In this document: positions 1,970-59,995 of the stretch, in pieces
Numbering within the stretch: position 1 is the first letter of the stretch
Layout: each line of letters starts with the position of its first letter
Program-made: the position numbers and the translations under genes
Notes under the pieces: generated by a model
The model's database searches: none
What the model was told of the DNA's origin: nothing
What the model saw: only the letters and a program-made list of their open reading frames with translations
NCBI GenBank assembly: GCA_017520185.1
Contig: JAFXGO010000030.1
Span: 124,001 to 188,000 of the forward strand
Direction: 5' to 3'
Length of the DNA: 64,000 nucleotides
Source: Elusimicrobiaceae bacterium
GTDB lineage: Bacteria; Elusimicrobiota; Elusimicrobia; Elusimicrobiales; Elusimicrobiaceae

Positions 1970-2893
1970 TTATTTTTTATGTGCAGTAAACAAAATAGCC
2001 GCTATCATGCTGGCTGGGTCTGCTATGTTTTTGCCGGCAATGTCAAAGGCTGTGCCATGTGTGGGGGACGTGCGCAAAAACTCTAAACCGGCCGTAATAT
2101 GAACAATCGGCTCTTTGGCGGCTAGTTTTAATCCCAAAAGGGCCTGATCATGATACATACACAAAATACCGTCAAAATTTCCTTTTACGTGTTTGTCCCA
2201 TAAACTGTCAGTGGGATAAATCCCCTGTATGTGAATGCCGGATTTTTGCAGCGTTTTGATGGCCGGTAAAATGATTTTATTTTCTTCATTTCCAAAGCGG
2301 CCATTATCTCCGCCATGCGGATTTAAAGTACTTACGGCAATGTGCGGATTTGAAGAATTTAAGCGTTTCAGTGCTTTGGCAAAATCTTTTCCGGCTTGTA
2401 TGATGCGGGCTTTGCTCAGAGTATTGGGTAAATCTGCAATGGCAAAATGTTCCGTGACTAAGGCACAACGTATTTGACCGCTGACAAACATCATCAAAGC
2501 GGTTTTTCCGTAATATTCGCGCAGAAACTCGGTATGTCCTGTAAAGTGCACCCCTGCTTTAGCCCAGCTTTGTTTGGAAACGGGGGAGGTGACAACCGAT
2601 GTTTTGTGTTTGTGGGCCAATTTACAGGCAAGTTTTAAGGCTTTGAAAGAAATGTCTCCTCCCCATCGGCTGGGTTGGACAGTGGCAGGTTTTTCATATA
2701 CAGATTCTATGGGAATAAGCCCTGCTAAATCGGGTGTGAAACCTGCTTTATACAAAGTGGTCGGCTCGCCAATTACAATGGGGGTGCAGGCTTTTTGGAC
2801 GCGCTTATCCCGCAGGGCTTTGACAGTCACTTCCGGTCCAATGCCCAACGGTTCTCCTGCAGTAATAAAAAGAATGGGTTTTTGTTCTTTCAT
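1970..2893 (-). CDS. pdxA: 4-hydroxythreonine-4-phosphate dehydrogenase
   Basis: A 307-residue PdxA-family enzyme of the DXP-dependent pyridoxal phosphate pathway, oxidising 4-phosphohydroxy-threonine with NAD. Family signatures are ITAGEPLGIGPEV at the N-terminus, GHTEFL in the middle (metal-ligand His), MYHDQAL and the C-terminal THGTAFDIAGK. Length is slightly below the usual 320-330. It lies 47 bases downstream of the SurA-like gene on the same strand, separated by a GC-rich hairpin. No obvious Shine-Dalgarno precedes the ATG. PLP made through this route would serve the alpha-oxoamine synthase at the right end of the window. Confidence 0.93.
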   Translation of the reverse strand: MKEQKPILFITAGEPLGIGPEVTVKALRDKRVQKACTPIVIGEPTTLYKAGFTPDLAGLIPIESVYEKPATVQPSRWGGDISFKALKLACKLAHKHKTSVVTSPVSKQSWAKAGVHFTGHTEFLREYYGKTALMMFVSGQIRCALVTEHFAIADLPNTLSKARIIQAGKDFAKALKRLNSSNPHIAVSTLNPHGGDNGRFGNEENKIILPAIKTLQKSGIHIQGIYPTDSLWDKHVKGNFDGILCMYHDQALLGLKLAAKEPIVHITAGLEFLRTSPTHGTAFDIAGKNIADPASMIAAILFTAHKK

Positions 2894-2900
2894 GCTACAT

Positions 2901-2930
2901 AAAGGCGGTCGCGCAGGCAGCCGCCTTTTT
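2901..2930 (-). terminator. GC-rich hairpin between surA-like gene and pdxA
   Basis: An 8-bp stem AAAGGCGG/CCGCCTTT encloses a 12-base loop. On the minus strand it is followed only by TTTATG, so termination would be inefficient. It could be an attenuating terminator or RNA-stability hairpin between the two genes. Confidence 0.45.
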
Positions 2931-2940
2931 ATCTGGAAAA

Positions 2941-4206
2941 TTATTTCTTTTCTTCTTTTACTTCGCTTTTACTTTCTTCTTTTTTGCCTTCTTTAGCAGT
3001 ATCTTTTTTGTCAGATTTTTCAGTGTCTGCTTTGGCCGATTTTTCTCCTTCTTTTTTGGCTTCGGCGGCGGCACGTTTGGCTGCTTCGGCTTCGATTACT
3101 TTGTCTACCTCAAAGGTTTTGCTCACTTTGATATCGGCTTTATCGGCCAGTCCGTTGACATATTCCATCATCGCGGTTTGGATTTTGTTTTGAGCCACAT
3201 ATTGGGCTAAATCTCCTGCGATATCTTCAAAAGAAACTTCTTTTTCGGCACGTTTTTCTTTTACTTTGATAATATGCCAACCTACTTCTGTTTTAATCGG
3301 GGTACTGACTTTGCCTACCGCTAAGGTAAAGGCGGCATTGTCCACTTCTTTCGGGGCGATGCCTTTGATTAAAATCATATCTCCTCCGCTGGCTAAAGCG
3401 GCTTTGTCTTCGGTGTATTTCTTTACAGCGGCAGAGAAATCCATTCCTCCGTCCAATTCTTTTTTGATTTGTTTGGCTAATTCTTCTTTTTTCTTGGCCT
3501 CTTCGGCTGTCATGTCTTTGGTAATGGATAAATAGATGTGTCCCACGCGCACTTGCTCAGCAGTTAATTGTTTGAGTTTGGCGGCAATAAGTTGCGCTTC
3601 ACGCAATTTGGCAGGATCTTCTTTTTCCAATTTTTTCAAGGCTTTGGTGTTGTTTTTAAGAGCCGCTTCTACATTGGAGTACAAAGCCTTTACGTCTGCT
3701 TCTTCCACCGGTTTGACGGTAGATTGCACCTGAAGTTCTAAAAGTTTTTTAACAGAAATATCTTTTTTAATTTTATTTTTATAGGCCTTTAAACTCATGT
3801 GTTGTTTTTTGAGTGCTTCATTAAAGCGTTTGTCTGCACCTTTCGGGTCTTGTTTGCCATTTTCGTCAATGACAAAGCGTGCTTTAATTTCTGCCAAACC
3901 GGCATCTATTTCAGAGTCTTTGACTTGAATTTTGGCCTCTTCGGCTGCTTGATACAAAAGTTCTTTAGAGATTAACTCTCTTAATACTTCTTTTCCCAAC
4001 ATATCTTTAGCATAAGGTTGCTCTAAGATTTGCGGTGCGGCTGCTTGATATTGTTCGATGACTCCTTCGTAATAAGTGTCATATTCAGAAGATAATACCG
4101 GACGTCCGTTGACGGTGGCCACAGACGCGTCCATCACTTTGGCTTGTAAGCCCGCTGTTAAGCATACCCCCAACACGGGCAAGAGAAATTTACTCATCTT
4201 GTTCAT
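2941..4206 (-). CDS. Periplasmic SurA/PpiC-type peptidyl-prolyl isomerase with charged tail
   Basis: A 421-residue secreted foldase. A Sec signal peptide (MNKMSKFLLPVLGVCLTAG...) is followed by a SurA-N-like helical chaperone region, an insertion rich in Lys/Ala, and one parvulin (PpiC) domain at roughly residues 215-325 with VGHIYLSI and VGWHIIKVKEK. The last 60 or so residues are an almost purely Lys/Glu/Ala/Ser tail, probably disordered. The start is placed 33 bases inside the longest frame because AGGTGG sits 6 bases before this ATG. It overlaps the preceding foldase gene by 17 bases, implying translational coupling. The likely role is folding of outer-membrane or secreted proteins. Confidence 0.82.
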   Translation of the reverse strand: MNKMSKFLLPVLGVCLTAGLQAKVMDASVATVNGRPVLSSEYDTYYEGVIEQYQAAAPQILEQPYAKDMLGKEVLRELISKELLYQAAEEAKIQVKDSEIDAGLAEIKARFVIDENGKQDPKGADKRFNEALKKQHMSLKAYKNKIKKDISVKKLLELQVQSTVKPVEEADVKALYSNVEAALKNNTKALKKLEKEDPAKLREAQLIAAKLKQLTAEQVRVGHIYLSITKDMTAEEAKKKEELAKQIKKELDGGMDFSAAVKKYTEDKAALASGGDMILIKGIAPKEVDNAAFTLAVGKVSTPIKTEVGWHIIKVKEKRAEKEVSFEDIAGDLAQYVAQNKIQTAMMEYVNGLADKADIKVSKTFEVDKVIEAEAAKRAAAEAKKEGEKSAKADTEKSDKKDTAKEGKKEESKSEVKEEKK

Positions 4207-5044
4207 AAATAACCACCTTGTATTTATTTTGTAAAGCATTCAAAGCCGCATCTATTTTTTGATTTTCCAAAATAGTACGGATACGCGGAGCCGCATCTTT
4301 TAGTTTCAGACGCCGTTCTCCCGTTTTCATTATTATATGAAATCCTTGTGTTGTTTTTACAAAGCCCTGCACTGAGCCGGTGGAAGAATTGGCGGCAATT
4401 ACTTCTAACTCTGGTATAAATTCGCCCGGCATAAAAGAAATTTCTTTCCCGTTGCTTTCTTCGGGGGCTTTGGAATATTGACGATCTAACTCTTTCCAGC
4501 GACTTTTGGAACGTTTTAATTCTCGCCAAACGGCATCGGCTGTTTCAGCATCGGGAATGATGATTTGCTTGATTGTCATTTCATAAGGGTATTTGTCATA
4601 ATACTGGGCGATTTCTTCTTCCGAAACGGAGATGATGCCCTTTTCGCGCATATGTTCTTCCCACATTCGGTTAAGCAAATCGGAAGAAAAACTAAAATAA
4701 ATTTCTTTTAATTGTTCGCGTTTGTCTTCCAATGCGGTGAGGTAAAAATCTTCTTTATCCAGGTTTTCTTCTTTGGCATCTAAGGCAATTAATTGTTCTC
4801 TGGCAAGCACGTGGATAAAGTTCTTTCTTCCGACGGGAGTTTTGGCATATTCTTGATCTTCTGTCGGCAATACGGCCAAGCGTTCTTCCAATTGACGTTG
4901 AGAAATCTGTACGGGGCCGACCTCCGCTACAATGATATCTTTAGGGGGGGCTGTTTCCAAATCGGCTTCAATGTCTAGGGCTTGAGATTTTTTACAAGCC
5001 GTTAATAAAGAAAGTGCAAAAAATACAAATAAAAATTTCTTCAT
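4190..5044 (-). CDS. PpiC-type peptidyl-prolyl isomerase lipoprotein
   Basis: A 284-residue lipoprotein: the signal peptide ends in the lipobox LLTAC, followed by a SurA-N-like helical part and one parvulin domain (about residues 155-260; IKQIIIPDAETAD, GFHIIMKTGERR). It is probably membrane-tethered in the periplasm, where it would assist protein folding together with the SurA-like protein encoded just downstream. The gene starts 3 bases after the mfd stop codon, without a Shine-Dalgarno. TGCTATAGT ends 6 bases before the ATG, inside the end of mfd, so it can also be transcribed independently. Confidence 0.82.
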   Translation of the reverse strand: MKKFLFVFFALSLLTACKKSQALDIEADLETAPPKDIIVAEVGPVQISQRQLEERLAVLPTEDQEYAKTPVGRKNFIHVLAREQLIALDAKEENLDKEDFYLTALEDKREQLKEIYFSFSSDLLNRMWEEHMREKGIISVSEEEIAQYYDKYPYEMTIKQIIIPDAETADAVWRELKRSKSRWKELDRQYSKAPEESNGKEISFMPGEFIPELEVIAANSSTGSVQGFVKTTQGFHIIMKTGERRLKLKDAAPRIRTILENQKIDAALNALQNKYKVVIYEQDE

Positions 5045-5046
5045 AT

Positions 5047-8000
5047 CTATACTATAGCATTTTGCGGTTTTATTACATGCTCAAAAAATGTAATTATTTG
5101 CTCAGCCTCTTGTACGGAGTCTTGTTGTTTGTCTAAGGTAATGCGAAGGCCATCTCCGTTTTTTGATTTGATGAACTGTACGCGAGGTCCATAGTTTTGG
5201 AGTACTAGGGCCGGCAAATCGGGAGGCATTTGAAAGTCTGAGGTGAACAAAAACTCCAATCCTTGAGGGGTATATTCCAAGTGGTAAATGCGCAATAGTC
5301 CTGCGCGGCGGGATAATTGTAAAATCCTGTTTAAATTGAGCAGTTCCTGCGGTACGGGCCCGGCAAAATCCGACAGTTTGTGCAGAATCTGTGCAGATCT
5401 TTGTTCATCGGCAGCCATCAATTCTTTGTAATATTTCAAACGTTCGCTATCATCGGGCAAATAATCCGGAGAGATATAAGCGGGTATAGGCAAATTGATC
5501 GTAGCACGAATCGTGCGTTCTGTTTTTTCTCCTTTAAGTTTTTTTACTTCCGCCGCTACTAAATCGCAGTACATATTCAGCCCCACTTCATTTACGTATC
5601 CGTGTTGTTTTACGCCTAACAGTTCCCCTGCTCCGCGTATTTCCATATCGCGCAAGGCTAACTTAAAGCCGCTGCCCAAATCACTAAATTCCATCAGAGC
5701 CGATAAACGTTTTTTGGCTTCTTCCGTCGGGTCTTTTTCTTTAGTTGCTTTATAGGGCATGGCTAACAGCTGGGCATAGTTTTCTTGTTCTTGAGGCTCT
5801 TTTTGCTTAAACAACCAATCCGGATGGAAAAGATAACAATAGGCTTTTTGATCTCCACGTCCGATTCTGCCACGCAGTTGATATAACTGCGCTAGTCCAA
5901 AATTTTGGGCATTTTCCACAATTAAAGTATTGGCATTGGTAATATCTAAGCCGGATTCAATAATGGTGGAAGCCAGCAAAATATCATATTTTCCGTTATG
6001 AAAATCCCACAAAGTTTGCTCTAATTCGCTTTCTTTCATTTGTCCATGTGCCATGCAAATTTTGGCCTGAGGCACTAATTGTTGTAAAAACAAGTAGCGT
6101 GATTGCATGCTTTGCACGCTGTTGTAAACGTAATATATCTGTCCGCCGCGTGCCAACTCTTGGCTAATGGCAGAAGCGGCCACCTCATTATTCCATGGAC
6201 AAACCACCGTTTTGATCGGGGTGCGACCGCGAGGGGGAGTGTCAATAAGCGAAATATCTCTTAAAGATGAGAGTGATTGATTTAAAGTGCGCGGAATGGG
6301 GGTGGCGCTGAGCATTAAAGTATGCACCCCGGCACTTTTGGCTTTGATTTTTTCTTTTTGTTTCACACCAAAACGATGTTCCTCGTCAATAATCACAAGC
6401 CCCAAATCATGAAAAGAAATATCTTGAGAAAGCAAGCGATGGGTGCCGATGATGATATCACAAACACCGTCTTTAAGTTGCTGGATAATTTCTTTTTGTT
6501 CTTTTTTGGTTTGAAAGCGGCAAAGCATTTCTATATTAACGGGAAATCCTGCCATACGTTTGCGAAATGTTTTGCAATGTTGGTCTGCCAAAATAGTGGT
6601 AGGAGCAAGCATCATTACTTGTTTTCCGCTCATTACCGCATGCAGTGCTGCCCGCATGGCCACTTCGGTTTTACCAAAGCCAACATCTCCCACCAATACG
6701 CGGTCCATAGAGCAGGCGCGGCTCATATCTTTTAGCACGTCTTCTATGGCTTGGGTTTGACCGGGAGTTTGTACAAAAGGGAAAGAGTCGGCAAATTCTT
6801 TTTCAATACGTTGGTCTCCGGTTAAGGCTTGTGTGCCGGCGGCTTGACGTTGAGCCTCCAATTTTAAAATTTCTTTGGCTGTTTTTTGTGCTTCTTCTTT
6901 TACACGTTTTTTGACGTCTTTCCACGCAACGCCGCCTAATGCAGATAAAGCCGGTGCCTTGCCTCCTGCCCCGATATATTTTTGTACTCGGTTGAAATCA
7001 TATATCGGCACGTACAACTTACTCCCGCGTCTATATTCGATAATAAGACAATCGGTAGGATTTTCCTCTTTATCCATGACTTCAAGGCCCAAATATTTAC
7101 CTATACCGTGATGTTGGTGCACCACATAATCTCCGGCGCGCAATTCTTTAAAACGTACCTTTTGGGCATTCTCTAAGGTAATATTTTTCAAAGAGGAAAT
7201 AGGGCGGTAGCGCCTATTTAGAATATCTGCAGAAGTGATAAAAGCAAATTTTTCCTGCGGACTATAAAAACCTTGTGCGAGCGGAGAAATAATAAGCGGT
7301 AAATTTTTTAAGTGTTTATAATCCTGCATAATTTCTGACAGGCGGTCCAATTCTCCTCTATTTAAACAAGAAACAGTGACACCGATGCCCTGTTTAAGCA
7401 AAGAGGCAACCTCTCTGTCTAAAAGAGAAAAATTGGCATTAAACTCAATGTTTGATTTAAACAGGCAGTTTTGACCTTGCGCCATAGGAAGCAAAGAAAA
7501 AATGACGGCCTGTGGATAAATGGAGAAATTAAAATCTCCATCGGGTTGGTCAAAAATATATTGAGCATTTTTTACATAATCTGCCAAAGTGGCGGGAGTA
7601 TGTTCGAAGGACAAAGAAACAATGGAAATACGGTCTATATGTTTCTGTGTGTTTTGTGTGTCAATGTCAAAAGCACAAATGTTTTCTACTTTGTTCCCAG
7701 AAAAATATAAACGAAAAGGAAACTTTTCTCCTGCCAAAAATAAGTCCAACACGCTGCCACGTACGGCGTATTGGCCGGCGATTTCGGTGTAGTCCTCTCG
7801 GGTGTATCCGCGATATTGCAAAATATCCAGCAAGTCGTTTCTGCGCAGGGAATCCCCGCATTGAATGGTAAAGGTGTTGGCTTTAAAATCTTTTGGCGTG
7901 GGCAAGGGTGTTTGCCAATCTTTATACTGTGCCATTAAAGCAAAAGGCTTTTGGGCGGTGATTAAGCGATGCAGAACAGCCATTTGCCCCGTTTTTTGTT

Positions 8001-51332: not shown

Positions 51333-53318
51333 TTAATCTTTCAACTCTGTTCCTTTTAAAATTCGCCACGCGGCAATAATGCGGTAGGCTTTGAGTTTTT
51401 CTTCCATTTCTTTTTGTTGTTGCGGGGAAAGAGGGGGAAAATGAGCATCTAATAACTCATACTCTTTTATATTATGTGTACCCAAGGCATATGGGTTAAT
51501 CCAATTATAAGTATGCAACCCTAGTGTTTGTCGGGATAAAATATCCTCTCCCAAAGCATAATAAGGGGTTCCTTTCGGCAGTATTAATTCTAAAACGGTA
51601 GCGGCAATATCCATGTGGCTGGCGGCAGCATGAGCAGGCAACATTTGTTTGGAAATTCCTTTTCCAAATATGACCAAAGGCACAGACAAACGTTCGTAAA
51701 GAGAAGGATTGTCTTTCAAGGTCCAACGTGCGGCATGGTCTCCTGTGATAATAAAAAGGCTGTCGGGATATTTTTCGTACATCTTTAAAACGAAATCCGT
51801 TAAGTGATGATCTGCATATTCAAAATGTTGTAAGCGTTGGAGAAACAGATTTTCATCGGAAATATCGTCAGGAAGAAGTTTCTTAAGTTCTTTTTCGTCC
51901 GTCAGTTCTTTTTCCTTTTTTGTGTCTAAAGTGTAAGGCGTGTGATTGGTGCTGGTAAGGATTAAATTAAAAGAAGGTTGCGGCGTAATTTTTTGCGCCG
52001 CATTTCTGAGCATCGTTTTATCCTGTACCCCCCACACACTTCCTTCTCCACCTAAATCGGCAAAATAAAAAGATTCGTCCATTTTTTGATGTTTCATGAA
52101 AGGACCAATATTTTCCCAAGATGGAAAACCACCATAGAAGAAGCGGGTTTTATAGCCTTGTTTTTTAAGTTGCACCGAAAGGGCAGTTTCGTAAGGTTCT
52201 TGGGCGGTAGGGCGATTGGCAGTCAGCAAATTAATCTCCGGCATTCCCAATAAAATGGAAGTGATGGCAAACATCGTTCCGTTGGAGGCAGGTAAAAACT
52301 TGTCAATCAAAATAGCATTCTCTTTTTGCAAAATGGATTGAATCCCTTTGGAAATAGGCAAATGACGGTAGTTTTTTAATAAGGGCCAAAGCATATAGTT
52401 TTCCGCTACAATGACGAAAATATGCTGTGGTTTTTGGATTTTGGCTCCTTGTGCTTTTTTTTCTAAAAAGGGAATCAAAGAATCCTCATTATACTTATCC
52501 GTACCTAACAGGTAGGCGGCTGCTTTTCTCACATCTTCAGCGTTGATATCGGCTGACATTTTGGCAAATTGCTTATAAATACGGCTGGCTTTGTAAAGGG
52601 CTTGTATGTCATCTAAAATGGCTTCGTTTAGCAGGTGTTGACTCATGCGGGCGGCATTTTTCCAGTAAATAGAGCCATTGAAATCAAAACTGCCTCCTCT
52701 GCGTACAAATACAGCAGCGGGAACCAAAAAAATACAAATCAAAACCACATATAAGGTTTTTCTTGCAGAGGCGGCACATTTTTCTCCCAATTTTTTGCCA
52801 AAAATCAAAAAATATTTAAGAATAAAGCAACCTCCGGCCGCTTGTAAAAGAGCCACCAAAGATCGGCCCAGCGCATGATGTTGGTCAATGGCTGTCATCA
52901 CAATAGCCCACATATCATCGTGTACGGTATTGAAGATAAAAGGACTAAAGGCATTTTGAAATTCTTGGTAATAGGCTAGGCGCGTTTGAAATAAAAAGGC
53001 AAAAATTAAAATAACAAAACTACCGTATAAAAAACGGAATTTATTGGCCTTGTAAGAGGGGAAAATCTGTTTAAGTAAAGTGCCCAATACAAATGATGGC
53101 AAAAAGAAAGCACCTGCCGTTTTAAGTCCGATACGTAGACCATACCACATGGTGAACAGAATATCCTGTGGCGTGGTGGTGGCTAGCAGTTGATCTCTAA
53201 AAAGAAAGATAAATGCAGCCCTGTATATAGACAACATAAAAAGCAAGAAGATGAAAAACAAAGCATCCTGTGCAAAGTTTTCCAAGAAAGAAGAACGACG
53301 AGAAAAGTTTTTTTTCAT
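51333..53318 (-). CDS. LtaS-like membrane sulfatase / phosphoglycerol (or phosphoethanolamine) transferase
   Basis: A 661-residue protein with five N-terminal membrane helices (to about residue 205) and a C-terminal periplasmic alkaline-phosphatase-fold domain. Metal and nucleophile motifs are VIVAENYM (Glu), SNGTMFAITSILLG (Thr nucleophile), NLILTSTNHTPY (His) and FIITGDHAARW (Asp-His). Members add phosphoglycerol or phosphoethanolamine to surface polymers or lipids; in a Gram-negative cell the target may be a periplasmic glycan or LPS. It lies 20 bases after the M29 peptidase on the same strand. Confidence 0.87.
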   Translation of the reverse strand: MKKNFSRRSSFLENFAQDALFFIFLLFMLSIYRAAFIFLFRDQLLATTTPQDILFTMWYGLRIGLKTAGAFFLPSFVLGTLLKQIFPSYKANKFRFLYGSFVILIFAFLFQTRLAYYQEFQNAFSPFIFNTVHDDMWAIVMTAIDQHHALGRSLVALLQAAGGCFILKYFLIFGKKLGEKCAASARKTLYVVLICIFLVPAAVFVRRGGSFDFNGSIYWKNAARMSQHLLNEAILDDIQALYKASRIYKQFAKMSADINAEDVRKAAAYLLGTDKYNEDSLIPFLEKKAQGAKIQKPQHIFVIVAENYMLWPLLKNYRHLPISKGIQSILQKENAILIDKFLPASNGTMFAITSILLGMPEINLLTANRPTAQEPYETALSVQLKKQGYKTRFFYGGFPSWENIGPFMKHQKMDESFYFADLGGEGSVWGVQDKTMLRNAAQKITPQPSFNLILTSTNHTPYTLDTKKEKELTDEKELKKLLPDDISDENLFLQRLQHFEYADHHLTDFVLKMYEKYPDSLFIITGDHAARWTLKDNPSLYERLSVPLVIFGKGISKQMLPAHAAASHMDIAATVLELILPKGTPYYALGEDILSRQTLGLHTYNWINPYALGTHNIKEYELLDAHFPPLSPQQQKEMEEKLKAYRIIAAWRILKGTELKD

Positions 53319-55405: not shown

Positions 55406-56515
55406 TTATAGACTTTTTTGATACAGACGGTATCGTTTTGTCTGGCGGCAGCCGGCTTCGGTCATGGCGCGGATAATACCGTCATTATCCTCTAAAATCC
55501 AAGAAAGTTCTGCTTCGTCCCAAATGGCTACCCCATAATCTACGATATGTTTGATCAGCACCAAATCAATGCCTCTTTTACGGTAGTTGGGGTCAATGCC
55601 CAGCATAATTAACCGCGCATCGCGAATTTTGGGCCATTTGAGCAAGGCTTTTACAGTGCGGAAAGGATTACACAAAGTGCCACGTAAAATTTGAAGCACG
55701 TGGTTCATATTCGCAATAGCAATATAAAATCCGGCCGGTACACCATCTACTTCGGCTATACAGGTGCCTTCCGGCTTTACAATCCATTTTAGTTCTTCTA
55801 CCATATCCTGAATTTCCTGTTCGGAAATGGGGGTGTGTCCCCAATTTGCGGCCCAAGCATCATTATAGATTTTACGAATGATAGATGCTTCTTGCTTTAA
55901 ATTTTTAAGGTTTAATCGGCGCAGGGTAAGCCCCTTTCCTCGTGCAGCGCGTGCGACAATTTTTTCAAATAGAGGGGAGAATTTGTCTTCTTTGCTGCGG
56001 TGAAAAGCCAGCAAATCTTTTACTTTACTAAATCCCTCTTTCTCAATTAACTCCATATAGTAAGGGTAATTGTAGGGCATCATGATAGAGGGCATAGCGT
56101 CAAAAGAGTCGGTCAATAAGCCATATACATGGTTGCTGGAAGGATTAGCCGGCCCGCGTACGGCCTCAACTCCTTGAGCGCGGAGCCATTTTTCACCTTC
56201 TGCAAACAGAGCATGTGCTACTTCCTGGTCATGGATGGCATCAAAAAATCCGAAAAACCCGATATTTTCTTTTTGATACTCATTGTACGTGTCATTAACC
56301 AAAGCACATAAGCGGCCTGCCACTTCACCGTCTTTGTACGCGAGCAGCAGTTTCCTTCTGGCGTGAGTCCAGAAGGCATTTTCCGGTTTTAAAAGTTTTA
56401 GGGTATCGGCTTTTAATTCACCCACCCAGTAGGGGTTGTTTTGATACAACCGGTAAGGAAAATGAATAAAAGTTTTTAAATCTTTTTCGGCGTCTTTGAT
56501 GACTATTTGACTCAT
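55406..56515 (-). CDS. GNAT-fold N-acyltransferase-like protein, candidate bacterial ceramide synthase
   Basis: A 369-residue protein whose N-terminal pattern (FIHFPYRLYQNNPYWVGELK, FFGFFDAIHD, VRGPANPS, MMPYNYPYYMELIEKEGF) belongs to a large family of GNAT-like proteins usually annotated as N-acetyltransferases. To my recollection this family includes the bacterial ceramide synthase. A GNAT acyl-CoA-loop-like LGIDPNYRKRGIDLVL lies near residue 310. It is encoded directly after the serine-palmitoyltransferase-like gene, the expected partner in N-acylating a sphingoid base. The start with GGAGAAG upstream lies well inside the longest frame. The specific reaction is inference. Confidence 0.65.
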   Translation of the reverse strand: MSQIVIKDAEKDLKTFIHFPYRLYQNNPYWVGELKADTLKLLKPENAFWTHARRKLLLAYKDGEVAGRLCALVNDTYNEYQKENIGFFGFFDAIHDQEVAHALFAEGEKWLRAQGVEAVRGPANPSSNHVYGLLTDSFDAMPSIMMPYNYPYYMELIEKEGFSKVKDLLAFHRSKEDKFSPLFEKIVARAARGKGLTLRRLNLKNLKQEASIIRKIYNDAWAANWGHTPISEQEIQDMVEELKWIVKPEGTCIAEVDGVPAGFYIAIANMNHVLQILRGTLCNPFRTVKALLKWPKIRDARLIMLGIDPNYRKRGIDLVLIKHIVDYGVAIWDEAELSWILEDNDGIIRAMTEAGCRQTKRYRLYQKSL

Positions 56516-56526
56516 ATCTTCTCCAA

Positions 56527-56556
56527 AAAGAAAACCCCTCCGACAAGAGGGGTTTT
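56527..56556 (-). terminator. Hairpin between the alpha-oxoamine synthase and acyltransferase genes
   Basis: A 10-bp AAAACCCCTC/GAGGGGTTTT stem with a 6-base loop; the minus-strand tail CTTTTTGG is short on T beyond the stem. Probably a partial terminator that lowers acyltransferase expression. Confidence 0.75.
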
Positions 56557-56564
56557 GTAAAAGA

Positions 56565-57755
56565 CTATTTAATAATGCCGATGGCACGACCCGCTTGGGC
56601 AAAGGCATCGATGATTTTTTGCACGTGTTCATCCGTATGCGTGGCCATCAAGGTTAAGCGCATTAAGGCTTTTCCGGGAGGAACGGCCGGGCTGACTACC
56701 GGATTGGAGAAAATGCCGAGTTCATGCAAGGCTCTCCACATACGGAAGCAGTTTTCGTTGCTGCCCACATGTACCGGAATGACCGGCGTGGTGCTGGTGC
56801 CTAAATCATAGCCCAAGTCACGCAAGCCCTTTTTCAAATTATCCGTCATGCGGAATAAATTATCGCGGCGGGAAGTATCATTTTCAATAAGTTCCAACGC
56901 TTTATTAATAGAAGCCACAGAAGCCGGAGGCAAAGCGGCGGAGAAAATTTGACTGCGTGCACTGTGACGGATGTAGTGGATAATATCAGCATCACCGACC
57001 ACAAAACCACCTACAGTCGCGAAGGTTTTGGAACAGGTGCCGACCACCAAATCCACTTCGCCGTTTTCTAAACCAAAGTGTTCACAGGTACCGCGACCGG
57101 TTTTGCCCAAAATACCGGTGGCATGAGCATCGTCTACAATAATGCGGGCGCCGTATTTTTTGCCGATTTTTACAATTTCCGGCAAGGGGCAGATGTCCCC
57201 TTCCATACTAAACACACCGTCTACAATAATGAGTTTACCTGCTTCTTCGGGCAATTTGGCGATAACGCGCTCTAAGTCGGCCGGATCATTATGTTTAAAG
57301 CGCACCATTTCACCATCGGAAAGTTTTACGCCGTCTAAAATGCTGGCATGGTTCAACTTGTCTACAATGGCGTAATCCCCTTTTTTCAAAAGACAACTGA
57401 CAACACCCAAATTCATTTGATATCCGGTGGAAAAGATAAGTCCGGCTTCTTTACGTTTGAAATTGGCGATGCGTTGCTCTAATTCATCTTGGGCTTTGGT
57501 ATTACCATTTAAAAAGCGAGAACCGGCACAACCCGTACCATATTTAAGGGCTGCTTCGGAGGCTGCTTTTTTCATTTCGGGATCATTGGCTAAGCCTAAG
57601 TAATTGTTGGAGCCGGCCATGATGTAGGTTTTTCCGTTTAAGACGATTTCAGGCCCTTGAGCCGATTCAATCGGTTGAAAATAGCCGTAAATGCCCATGC
57701 GCATGGCTATTTTGGCATCTTTAAAGTTTCTGCATTTTTCAAAAATATCAGACAT
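56565..57755 (-). CDS. Alpha-oxoamine synthase, serine palmitoyltransferase-like
   Basis: A 396-residue PLP enzyme that condenses an amino acid with an acyl-CoA. The internal aldimine is at Lys243 (GTCSKTFATVGGF), with cofactor residues His136 (LNHAS) and Asp208 (VDDAHATG). The pattern MGIYGYFQPIES, AGSNNYLGL, KYGTGCAGSRFLNG, VRFKHNDPADLE and LTLMATHT resembles Bacteroidetes serine palmitoyltransferases more than BioF or KBL, judged by eye. No biotin or threonine-degradation genes are adjacent; an acyltransferase is. SPT would make 3-ketosphinganine. KBL or BioF cannot be excluded. The start has AAGGAAAAG upstream. Confidence 0.78.
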   Translation of the reverse strand: MSDIFEKCRNFKDAKIAMRMGIYGYFQPIESAQGPEIVLNGKTYIMAGSNNYLGLANDPEMKKAASEAALKYGTGCAGSRFLNGNTKAQDELEQRIANFKRKEAGLIFSTGYQMNLGVVSCLLKKGDYAIVDKLNHASILDGVKLSDGEMVRFKHNDPADLERVIAKLPEEAGKLIIVDGVFSMEGDICPLPEIVKIGKKYGARIIVDDAHATGILGKTGRGTCEHFGLENGEVDLVVGTCSKTFATVGGFVVGDADIIHYIRHSARSQIFSAALPPASVASINKALELIENDTSRRDNLFRMTDNLKKGLRDLGYDLGTSTTPVIPVHVGSNENCFRMWRALHELGIFSNPVVSPAVPPGKALMRLTLMATHTDEHVQKIIDAFAQAGRAIGIIK

Positions 57756-57778: not shown

Positions 57779-58246
57779 CTACTTTTGTACTTTCTTAATA
57801 ATATTAGTAGTAGAGCGTCCTTTGAGTAAGGCAAAACGCACTACTTTTTTTGCAAATTCACGACCCACGATTTCACTGGGTTTATAATCTCCGCCTTTGA
57901 CTAATACATCGGGGCGGACAGATTTAATAAGGTTGTAAGGGGTGTCCTCCGTAAAAACAGACACCGCATCCACAGATTGCAATGCCGCCAATACAAGCGC
58001 GCGGTCAGATTGTTTATTAACCGGACGAGTGGGGCCTTTTAAACGGCGGACGGATTCATCGCTATTAATACCCACCACCAATACGTCCCCTTTGCTGCGA
58101 GAAAACTCCAACACGCTAACATGTCCGGCATGTAAAATATCAAAACAACCGTTTGTAAATACAATCTTTTTGCCGGCTTGTCGTTGTTTCTCTACCCAGT
58201 TGGAGAGTGCACGACGGCCTAAAATTTTATTTTTTGCTTTCGTCAT
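57779..58246 (-). CDS. rfaE2: D-glycero-beta-D-manno-heptose 1-phosphate adenylyltransferase (RfaE2-type)
   Basis: A 155-residue nucleotidyltransferase, equal to the C-terminal half of HldE. It makes ADP-heptose for LPS inner core. Signatures: FTNGCFDILHAGHVSVLE (HxGH), VGINSDESVRRLKG, and the C-terminal GRSTTNIIKK. It overlaps the end of accC by 20 bases and is followed after 23 bases by the alpha-oxoamine synthase, all in one operon devoted to lipid and envelope precursors. The kinase half (RfaE1) is not in this window. Confidence 0.9.
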   Translation of the reverse strand: MTKAKNKILGRRALSNWVEKQRQAGKKIVFTNGCFDILHAGHVSVLEFSRSKGDVLVVGINSDESVRRLKGPTRPVNKQSDRALVLAALQSVDAVSVFTEDTPYNLIKSVRPDVLVKGGDYKPSEIVGREFAKKVVRFALLKGRSTTNIIKKVQK

Positions 58247-59612
58247 TTTTTTCCGCCGTTAACATTCTTTCAATGAGTCCCGTATCCATATTTCCGGCAA
58301 TAAAATCTTCATTTTTCAAGATTTTCTGGTGAAAGGGAATCGTGGTTTTTACACCGGAAATTTTAAATTCGCCCAAGGCACGTTCGCTGCGTTTTAATAA
58401 TTCTTCGCGATTGGGGGCAGTGACAATTAACTTGGCAATTAAACTGTCATAATAACTGGGAATGGTATATCCCGTATACATATGACTGTCTACGCGAATG
58501 CCCAAACCGCCGGAAGGAATCCATTCTTCAATCGTTCCGGGACAGGGGGTAAAATTGTTATCGCTATCTTCGGCATTGATACGATGCTCCACCACATGAG
58601 CACGAACAACAGAGGCCTCTTGTTGTGTGATGGAAAGGGGCATTCCTTGTGCAATTTCAATTTGCAATTTTACTAAGTCTTGCCCACATACTTCTTCCGT
58701 CACGGGGTGTTCCACTTGAAGGCGAGTGTTTACTTCCATGAAATAAAAGTCTTTATTGGGGGCCATTAAAAATTCGACGGTTCCTACCCCATGATAGTTG
58801 GCGGCTTTGACTAATTTAACGGCCGCTTCCTGCAGTTTTTTGCGTACTTGTGCAGTGACAAAAGCGGAGGGGGATTGCTCCACCAATTTTTGATGTCTTC
58901 GTTGCATGCTGCAGTCACGCTCGGCAAAAGCAACAGCATTTCCGTAATTGTCTGCGGCTACTTGCACTTCAATATGGCGCGGATTTAATACTAACTTTTC
59001 AAAATAAACGCGATCATCGCCAAAATTGGCCTTTGCTTCGCCTTGAGCCGTTTTCATCATTAAGTCCAAATCTTTTTCAGACAAACAGGCGCGCATGCCT
59101 TTCCCGCCACCGCCCAAAGCTGCTTTAATCATGATGGGATAACCGATTTTGCGAGCGACTTCTTTATAATTTTTGCCCACCACACCGTCTGAACCCGGTG
59201 TAATGGCCACCCCACCTTTAATGGCTATTTCTCTGGCTGTACTTTTTACACCCAACATGCTGATAGATTTGGCAGTAGGGCCGATAAAAGTAATACCGGC
59301 TTTGGTGATAGCATCGGCAAAATCTGCGTTTTCAGATAAAAATCCATAACCGGGGTGAACGGCATCGGCCCCTGTTATTTTGGCAGCCGTCACTACGGCA
59401 TCGATATTTAAATAACTCAAAGAAGAAGGGGCCGCCCCGATGCATACTGCTTCATCGGCCATACGTACGTGCAGGCTGTTTCGGTCCGCTTCGGAATAAA
59501 TGGCTACTGATTTGATCCCCATTTCTTTAAGGGTACGAATCACGCGTAAGGCGATTTCTCCGCGATTGGCAATCAATACTTTTTTAAAAGGTTTAATGGT
59601 AATTTTAGCCAT
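58227..59612 (-). CDS. accC: Biotin carboxylase subunit of acetyl-CoA carboxylase
   Basis: A 461-residue ATP-grasp enzyme that carboxylates biotin on a carrier protein. Motifs: KVLIANRGEIALRVIR, HPGYGFLSENADFA, the Gly-rich ATP loop ALGGGGKGMRAC, YFEKLVLNPRHIEVQ, and FMEVNTRLQVEHPVTE. All catalytic parts look intact. AGAGGAC precedes the ATG. It is 8 bases downstream of the AccB homologue, which lacks the biotinylation lysine, so its true carrier must be another protein. Confidence 0.95.
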   Translation of the reverse strand: MAKITIKPFKKVLIANRGEIALRVIRTLKEMGIKSVAIYSEADRNSLHVRMADEAVCIGAAPSSLSYLNIDAVVTAAKITGADAVHPGYGFLSENADFADAITKAGITFIGPTAKSISMLGVKSTAREIAIKGGVAITPGSDGVVGKNYKEVARKIGYPIMIKAALGGGGKGMRACLSEKDLDLMMKTAQGEAKANFGDDRVYFEKLVLNPRHIEVQVAADNYGNAVAFAERDCSMQRRHQKLVEQSPSAFVTAQVRKKLQEAAVKLVKAANYHGVGTVEFLMAPNKDFYFMEVNTRLQVEHPVTEEVCGQDLVKLQIEIAQGMPLSITQQEASVVRAHVVEHRINAEDSDNNFTPCPGTIEEWIPSGGLGIRVDSHMYTGYTIPSYYDSLIAKLIVTAPNREELLKRSERALGEFKISGVKTTIPFHQKILKNEDFIAGNMDTGLIERMLTAEKNDESKK

Positions 59613-59620
59613 ATTGTCCT

Positions 59621-59995
59621 CTAGGGTTCAATAAAGAAAAGAGGTTGGCCAAATTCTGCAGGCTTGCCGTCCTCAATGGAAATAATACGCAACACTCCGG
59701 ACACGGGGGCAGGGACAACATGTTTCTCAAAGGCACTTTCAATCAGGCCTAAAGACTGCCCTTCTTTGACGTTTTGCCCTTCTTTTAAAGATAAATTTTT
59801 TCCTTTGTCAGCCCCATGATAGATGCCTAAGGCGGGAGCCGTCACTGCCGTTAAATGACAAGTAAATTTAGCAGGTTCCGGCAGTGCTTGCCGAGTTTTA
59901 ATCTCAATGCAATTATGATCTTTTTGATAGCAAAACTCGGCCAAATCGGTCGTTTTAAGCCAGTCGGTAATTTCGGTAATAAGTTTGGTGTCCAT
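59621..59995 (-). CDS. accB: AccB-like carrier protein lacking the biotinyl-lysine
   Basis: A 124-residue BCCP homologue. The N-terminal helix (ITDWLKTTDLAEF...IEIKT) and the C-terminal biotinyl-domain fold (LKEGQNVKEGQSLGLIE, PVSGVLRIISIEDGKPAEFG) align with AccB without gaps. The hairpin that should read EAMKM instead reads ESAFE (residues 86-90): Phe89 replaces the biotinylated Lys, and the flanking Met residues are lost. Lys91 is two positions off. It therefore cannot be a normal biotin carrier. It heads the operon with accC and has a GAGG ribosome site. It may be a structural or regulatory subunit like the plant BADC proteins. Confidence 0.85.
   Translation of the reverse strand: MDTKLITEITDWLKTTDLAEFCYQKDHNCIEIKTRQALPEPAKFTCHLTAVTAPALGIYHGADKGKNLSLKEGQNVKEGQSLGLIESAFEKHVVPAPVSGVLRIISIEDGKPAEFGQPLFFIEP

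What the first reader, a model, noticed from the sequence alone, without database searches (positions are those of the whole stretch)
55406..57755. Serine-palmitoyltransferase-like enzyme paired with an acyltransferase: possible sphingolipid synthesis
The alpha-oxoamine synthase carries SPT-like blocks (KYGTGCAGSRFLNG, VRFKHNDPADLE) and is followed by a GNAT-type acyltransferase that resembles the family containing bacterial ceramide synthase. Both sit downstream of acetyl-CoA carboxylase and RfaE2 genes, i.e. lipid and LPS precursor supply. Bacterial sphingolipids are known mainly from Bacteroidetes, some Proteobacteria and a few others. If this lineage makes them, it would be a new taxon for the pathway and relevant to host interaction in a gut setting.
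Basis: inference. Interest (0 to 1): 0.66.

Follow-up and report, generated by a model that had tools for sequence, protein, structure and literature searches.

The report
Sphingolipid synthesis genes in Elusimicrobiota
A small gut bacterium of the phylum Elusimicrobiota carries the three known enzymes for building ceramide-type sphingolipids, lipids better known from animals, plants and Bacteroides, and a lipid analysis of a cultured relative could test this directly.

Summary
The synthase (56565-57755, -) falls in a clade with characterised serine palmitoyltransferases (SPT) of Bacteroidota and Sphingomonas. Joining it to KBL or BioF is rejected (AU p 0.002, 0.005). It has the alanine that published work uses to tell SPT from cysteate acyltransferase; the KBL and BioF rows do not. 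The neighbour (55406-56515, -) is a tandem-GNAT homologue of the ceramide-synthase candidate in a Sphingomonas SPT cluster (34% over 375 aa). The third enzyme, a CerR-type reductase, lies elsewhere in the same genome (contig C34), beside pgpA-tolQRA. In Elusimicrobiota outside this class CerR-SPT are contiguous in 41 of 54 genomes that have both. Across 119 genomes of the phylum the three genes occur and vanish together (96 all, 13 none). The genome has its own tdh-linked KBL and no biotin synthase above cut-off. So: a ceramide pathway in Elusimicrobiota. Printed work already predicts SPT-like genes in about 40 phyla, so this is a new member of a known kind. I found no held paper naming Elusimicrobiota as producers. 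No lipid has been measured; the head group is unknown.

The parts
56565..57755 (-). serine palmitoyltransferase (SPT), 396 aa from the ATG; ORF call extends to 57776
   Evidence: NF047600 SPT-CFB best family, 504 bits, under its 640 cut-off; best PDB match Sphingobacterium SPT 8guh 411.7 bits; tree and AU tests; Ala280/Lys250/His143/Arg373/Asn57 in the 403-aa ORF numbering
55406..56515 (-). bacterial ceramide synthase (bCerS)-type tandem GNAT N-acyltransferase, 369 aa; ORF call extends to 56632
   Evidence: 34% identity over 375 aa to Sphingomonas N-acetyltransferase near SPT-ACP-CerR; predicted tandem GNAT fold, pLDDT 93.4
57779..58246 (-). rfaE2 (D-glycero-beta-D-manno-heptose-1-phosphate adenylyltransferase), conserved neighbour
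   Evidence: TIGR02199 over cut-off; 58 of 60 related loci
58227..59612 (-). accC, biotin carboxylase subunit of acetyl-CoA carboxylase, conserved neighbour
   Evidence: TIGR00514 over cut-off; 59 of 60 loci
59621..59995 (-). accB-like biotin carboxyl carrier protein
   Evidence: TIGR00531 40 bits, under cut-off; Pfam Biotin_lipoyl over cut-off; 56 of 60 loci
56531..56556 (-). terminator-like hairpin plus T-run between SPT and bCerS; may set their ratio
   Evidence: 11-pair stem (the region as a whole has no more such sites than shuffles); z -3.1; similar hairpins in 15 of 22 Elusimicrobiaceae loci

Best explanation
These are the first two enzymes of a bacterial ceramide pathway in a gut Elusimicrobiota genome (the genus that holds Ca. 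Avelusimicrobium). SPT, a PLP enzyme, condenses serine with a long-chain acyl thioester (CoA or ACP, not determined) to 3-ketosphinganine. The bCerS-type tandem GNAT N-acylates it to ketoceramide. A CerR-type NAD-dependent SDR, coded elsewhere in the genome (G000:C34:291-1247), reduces the ketone to dihydroceramide. The linked accB-accC supply malonyl-CoA for chain elongation and rfaE2 serves heptose/LPS synthesis, which would make this an envelope-lipid gene block. Shown here: family membership of all three proteins, their co-inheritance across the phylum, conserved catalytic residues. Inferred: the reactions, their order (taken from Caulobacter work), the acyl donor, placement in the outer membrane. 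Unknown: the head group.
For: Closest family is SPT of Bacteroidota. Tree: query inside a 41-row clade with Sphingobacterium and Sphingomonas SPT (94/96), apart from KBL and BioF (100/96); KBL and BioF alternatives rejected. Ala280 in 41 of 41 SPT-like rows, N/S/T in 6 of 6 KBL/BioF; PMC9304779 gives Ala at this site for SPT and Lys for SulA (passages). bCerS: 34% to the Sphingomonas cluster protein; of 15 plasmid records seen in both the SPT and GNAT listings, 13 have the two genes within 10 kb. CerR: 223 bits against a model of SPT-linked CerR, next own SDR 124; groups with Sphingomonas CerR; all seven listed plasmid matches of 107 bits or more lie beside SPT/bCerS (30 of 167 records listed). 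Phylum: SPT and bCerS both in 101, neither in 15, discordant in 3 of 119. CerR-SPT-bCerS contiguous in relatives. Own KBL beside tdh; no bioB over cut-off in 41 genomes.
Against: No lipid data. SPT misses every curated NCBIfam SPT cut-off (504 against 640); the TIGR01825 and BioF scores are not far behind (402, 397). The 41-row clade's support (94/96) is just short of the tool's star. The own CerR is not linked to SPT, and its family (extended SDR) is large; its NCBIfam top match is HpnA at 97 bits, far under cut-off, as is that of the Sphingomonas CerR. The CerR tree had few outgroups. A hairpin with T-run separates SPT and bCerS. No dedicated ACP or acyl-ACP synthetase lies beside SPT as in Proteobacteria. 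The bCerS reference itself is identified by neighbourhood, not by assay of that very protein. Four of 41 close relatives lack a CerR match of this strength.
Confidence: 0.85

Rival explanations
1. The synthase is an SPT-fold enzyme that condenses another amino acid: cysteate (sulfonolipids), alanine or glycine (1-deoxy types), so the product is a sphingolipid-like but not a true sphingolipid.
For: The fold and most active-site residues are shared across these enzymes (PMC9304779 passages); PMC11334938 reports 1-deoxyceramides and alanine use by SPT (section 20). The cysteate acyltransferase chain 28eh scores 250 bits.
Against: Ala280 where SulA has Lys; SPT chains score far higher than 28eh (411 against 250). 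Alanine or glycine use is not excluded by sequence.
Confidence: 0.1
2. It is a second 2-amino-3-ketobutyrate CoA ligase or a BioF, and the GNAT is unrelated.
For: TIGR01825 and bioF models score about 400 bits; the superfamily is easily confused.
Against: AU tests reject both joins; the genome has another enzyme over KBL-type cut-offs next to tdh; no bioB over cut-off in 41 of 41 genomes, best own match 104.5 against 225; co-inheritance with bCerS and CerR.
Confidence: 0.03
3. The pathway is present but not expressed, or only partly kept, in this reduced genome.
For: Genome 1.4 Mb; some genomes of the phylum have lost one of the genes; a terminator-like hairpin stands before bCerS.
Against: Intact reading frames; 24 of 25 genus genomes keep an SPT at 82% identity or more; catalytic residues invariant in 14 of 14 Elusimicrobiales aligned.
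Confidence: 0.07

Closest known systems
Bacteroidota SPT (Sphingobacterium multivorum 8guh/3a2b; NCBIfam NF047600)
   Same: closest solved relative; PLP lysine, His, Arg, Asn and the Ala of the SPT active site
   Different: 47% or less identity to the plasmid-borne Bacteroidota homologues listed; 504 bits, below the curated cut-off; here next to bCerS, in Bacteroidota the genes are not close together (PMC11334938)
Caulobacter/Sphingomonas ceramide cluster (aasR, cerR, acpR, spt, cerS)
   Same: same three core enzyme families
   Different: no ACP or acyl-ACP synthetase beside SPT; SPT and bCerS side by side, whereas PMC11324152 (passages) says cerS always belongs to another operon than spt; CerR beside pgpA-tolQRA instead
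Black Sea 'clade B' Spt-like proteins
   Same: widely spread SPT-like genes in many uncultured phyla, some with bCerS and CerR nearby (PMC11334938, section 20)
   Different: Elusimicrobiota not named in that main text; its supplements were not readable here; gut and endosymbiont lineages rather than marine
SulA, cysteate acyl-ACP transferase (Alistipes)
   Same: same fold and superfamily
   Different: Lys281 in SulA, Ala280 here

Membership tests
serine palmitoyltransferase | clusters with characterised SPTs apart from KBL and BioF | tested here: met
serine palmitoyltransferase | PLP Lys, His, substrate Arg and Asn; Ala at the SulA Lys281 site | tested here: met
   Lys250, His143, Arg373, Asn57, Ala280 (roles from PMC9304779)
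serine palmitoyltransferase | over the curated cut-off of an NCBIfam SPT equivalog | tested here: not met
   504/640, 395/500, 344/670 bits; the models are named for CFB, beta- and alpha-proteobacterial clades, and a CerR-linked Elusimicrobiota SPT (L130) also misses (530.6/640). A name cut-off, not a property of the enzyme
serine palmitoyltransferase | makes 3-ketosphinganine from serine and a C16 acyl thioester | not testable with these tools
   -
bacterial ceramide synthase (bCerS) | full-length homology to the GNAT protein of known sphingolipid clusters | tested here: met
   34% over 375 aa, 219 bits, to the Sphingomonas parapaucimobilis cluster protein; also E. coli YghO, Pseudomonas and Roseomonas cluster proteins
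bacterial ceramide synthase (bCerS) | GNAT-type acyltransferase fold | tested here: met
   model pLDDT 93.4; best PDB matches tandem GNATs 2wpw, 7q3a, E 5e-14
bacterial ceramide synthase (bCerS) | N-acylates a sphingoid base | not testable with these tools
   -
ceramide reductase (CerR) | homologue in the genome that is closer to SPT-linked CerR than to other SDRs | tested here: met
   G000:C34:291-1247, 223 bits against 124 for the next, tree with few outgroups, look in plasmids
KBL or BioF | nests with reference KBL or BioF | tested here: not met
   AU p 0.0016 and 0.0052
SulA | Lys at position 281 (SulA numbering) | tested here: not met
   Ala280

The most novel reading that the evidence does not exclude
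Ceramide-based envelope lipids are an ancestral, near-universal trait of two large branches of Elusimicrobiota, kept through genome shrinkage to about 1 Mb. Two Endomicrobium-type genomes have dropped SPT while keeping reading frames for CerR and bCerS, as if they now acylate and finish sphingoid bases taken from their protist or gut host.
Probability: 0.3. Interest if true: 0.7.

Novelty: new member of a known kind. Interest (0 to 1): 0.5.

Why it matters
Bacterial sphingolipids from Bacteroides act on host immunity and metabolism. If gut Elusimicrobiota (the window's kin come from sheep, horse, yak and rumen samples) make them too, a further and overlooked source exists. The phylum includes lineages that have been cultured (recalled), so the prediction can be tested directly. 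The contiguous CerR-SPT-bCerS cluster in several uncultured phyla also supports the bacterial three-gene scheme.

Tried and rejected
LtaS-like sulfatase at 51333-53318 as a head-group transferase: dropped, it is near the operon in none of 60 related loci. RfaE2 as a ceramide head-group cytidylyltransferase: it passes the RfaE2 cut-off, so I kept the ordinary reading. PAP2_3-type head-group enzyme in the own genome: none found; one DAGK_cat lipid kinase exists (C24:970-1323; 315-aa ORF) but is not linked. Paper searches for Elusimicrobi with sphingolipid (38 papers, 20 listed), serine palmitoyltransferase (0) and ceramide (20, all listed), Endomicrobi with sphingolipid (6), and Elusimicrobium minutum with fatty acid and lipid (26, 12 listed) gave no report of sphingolipids in the phylum that I could see from titles and starts of abstracts. 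One of these papers (PMC7203096) was searched inside its held part: its sphingolipid passage is about Bacteroidetes and Chlorobi. Stankeviciute 2022 (PMC8891067) is not held, so its list of nine phyla was not seen. Five of the own genome's seven PF00155 matches were not scanned by NCBIfam; two of them (L006, L007) were not looked at further; with the SPT as query only SPT and KBL appear at E 1e-20.

Full report
What is there. On the minus strand of the window lie, in order, accB-like 59995-59621, accC 59612-58227, rfaE2 58246-57779, an alpha-oxoamine synthase 57755-56565 and a GNAT protein 56515-55406. The two starts are corrected against the mechanical ORF calls by relatives and ribosome-binding sites. 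The window is part of a 1.4 Mb genome, 95% complete. A genome-wide scan with named records shows the lineage: the best matches are Elusimicrobiaceae of sheep colon and other guts, and Candidatus Avelusimicrobium excrementipullorum, whose match position equals that of genome G001, labelled same genus.

The synthase is an SPT. Its best family is Bacteroidota-type SPT (504 bits, cut-off 640 not met) and its best solved relatives are Sphingobacterium SPT (411.7), Sphingomonas-type SPT (313.5 and less), then a BioF/KBL-named chain 8s1y (287), cysteate acyltransferase (250), KBL (232) and BioF (214). In a 50-row maximum-likelihood tree it lies in a 41-row clade with characterised SPTs of Sphingobacterium and Sphingomonas (94/96), away from KBL and BioF. 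The trees that join the Elusimicrobiales rows to KBL or to BioF are rejected, p 0.0016 and 0.0052. The residues that PMC9304779 (passages) lists for SPT are present: Asn57, His143, Lys250, Arg373; and Ala280, the site that is Lys in the cysteate enzyme SulA, is Ala in 41 of 41 SPT-like rows and N, S or T in 6 of 6 KBL/BioF rows. Three further rows outside the clade (Thioclava, Phocaeicola plasmid, Persicobacter) also have Ala, so the residue alone does not define SPT. The motif GSRxLNG is in 35 of the 41 SPT-like rows and in none of the 9 others. The genome has a separate KBL next to threonine dehydrogenase, over the TIGR01825 and PRK06939 cut-offs though not TIGR01822, and biotin synthase is over its cut-off in 0 of 41 genomes, so KBL and BioF roles are not needed or not likely.

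The GNAT protein is of the ceramide-synthase type. It matches, over 375 aa at 34% and 219 bits, an N-acetyltransferase of Sphingomonas parapaucimobilis that lies in a cluster with an NAD(P)H-binding protein, ACP and SPT. That SPT is over two curated SPT cut-offs. In 72,556 plasmid records only 43 match the GNAT protein at 1e-10. Of the 15 records that appear both among its 40 listed rows and among the 40 listed SPT rows (494 records matched in all), 13 have the two genes within 10 kb. Its predicted structure (29 sequences, pLDDT 93.4) is a tandem GNAT. The passages of PMC10865984 and PMC11324152 name Caulobacter CCNA_01212/CC_1154 as the acyltransferase and CCNA_01222/CC_1164 as CerR; I had no sequence of these and used the Sphingomonas cluster as stand-in.

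The reductase is in the genome. Around SPT in 48 related loci that I clustered, 34 held the GNAT and 23 a CerR-like SDR; none of the ten accC-bearing Elusimicrobiales loci held the SDR. A model of 12 such SDRs matches the Sphingomonas NAD(P)H-binding protein at 100% probability and finds in the own genome one gene at 223 bits, C34:291-1247, with the next SDR at 124; 37 of 41 relatives have a match of E 1e-59 or better, and G005, G014, G022 and G033 do not. It follows pgpA and tolQ-, tolR- and tolA-like genes (only PgpA was scanned; the Tol names are my reading of the sequences). In the tree it groups with the SPT-linked CerRs of Sphingomonas and Pseudomonas veronii (90/94) within the CerR clade (96/91), outside the three other own SDRs tested; outgroups were few. 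In plasmids, all seven listed matches of 107 bits or more sit next to SPT or bCerS, while the listed HpnA proteins score 79 or less (30 of 167 records listed).

Co-inheritance. Of 119 genomes of the phylum (at least 85% complete, drawn evenly), SPT is found in 102, bCerS in 103 and CerR in 101 at the thresholds used. All three are present in 96 and none in 13; SPT and bCerS disagree in 3 genomes, SPT and CerR in 9 (Fisher p 5e-16 and 2e-10, which ignore shared ancestry). The 11 genomes of the same class but other orders lack SPT and bCerS; one of them (G096) has a CerR-like match. In genomes outside the class, 41 of 54 with both SPT and CerR have them side by side on one contig (read by hand). 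The named loci L108, L130, L136, L140, L144 and L146 show CerR-SPT-bCerS contiguous in Endomicrobia and kin, while in Elusimicrobiales SPT-bCerS stand behind accBC-rfaE2 and CerR stands elsewhere.

How it most likely works. SPT condenses serine with an acyl thioester; bCerS adds the second acyl chain; CerR reduces the ketone. The order follows the Caulobacter localisation study (PMC11087976, abstract and discussion read) and is not tested here. AccB-AccC supply malonyl-CoA; the link to rfaE2 suggests co-control of envelope lipids (inference). Head group unknown: no PAP2_3 match, one unlinked lipid kinase.

Novelty. SPT-like genes are printed for 38 phyla in the Black Sea and about 40 in all (PMC11334938, section 20); that main text does not name Elusimicrobiota. 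Five searches that named the phylum, the class or Elusimicrobium minutum gave no report of such lipids that I could see from titles and starts of abstracts (not every hit was listed). This is a new member of a known kind, with a new gene arrangement, in a phylum with cultured members (recalled).

Against. No enzyme or lipid has been measured. The SPT misses curated cut-offs. A hairpin with a T-run (z -3.1) lies between SPT and bCerS in the window and similar ones in 15 of 22 Elusimicrobiaceae loci, so one transcript for both is not certain; the region has no more terminator-like sites than shuffles (7 against 6.8).

Noticed in passing
L204 (G057:C1:855500-862500) 2285-4615 and L205 (G041:C11:102500-110000) 2398-5198: Two Endomicrobium-type genomes keep open CerR and bCerS frames (62-66% to Endomicrobium) but SPT between them is gone (244-bp gap) or a remnant (714-bp gap, 87 aa at 30%). 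No other match above about 34% identity was found in them. dN/dS between the two is about 0.15-0.17 for both genes, though most divergence may predate the loss; the CerR frame in L204 lacks an ATG at the aligned start.
   Followed up: partly
window 56531-56556 (-): Terminator-like hairpin between SPT and bCerS, with similar ones at this place in 15 of 22 Elusimicrobiaceae loci. In Proteobacteria cerS is in a separate operon from spt, so different dosing of the two enzymes may be common.
   Followed up: partly
L201 (E. coli PN43 plasmid NZ_MG591698) 2501-8098: A full fatty acyl-AMP ligase, SDR, ACP, SPT-like and YghO (bCerS-like) cluster beside lptFG and glc genes, also seen in two other E. coli records; E. 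coli YghO is thus a bCerS homologue.
   Followed up: no
L110, L111, L121, L124, L131, L138: PAP2-superfamily membrane proteins (one scanned), and in four loci (L110, L111, L121, L123) a small protein that reads like a lipid kinase but has no Pfam match, stand near SPT in Nitrospirota, Geobacter, Gemmatimonadota and Cloacimonadota relatives: candidates for head-group steps.
   Followed up: no
L164 291-4137 (own contig C34): CerR sits in a conserved row of pgpA, tolQ-, tolR-, tolA-like genes and a small membrane protein, kept in two families.
   Followed up: partly
window 51333-53318 (-): Sulfatase-domain LtaS-like membrane protein (39.6 bits to a lipoteichoic-acid synthase model, far below cut-off) near the operon but not conserved there. 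In Rubrobacter an LTA synthase family gene follows SPT-bCerS-CerR.
   Followed up: partly
INPHARED records MT837435, MT838083, MT835888, MT835667, MT835841, MT835673: bCerS homologues (25-31%) in unannotated 'Bacteriophage sp.' records from human faeces; probably bacterial DNA in those records.
   Followed up: no
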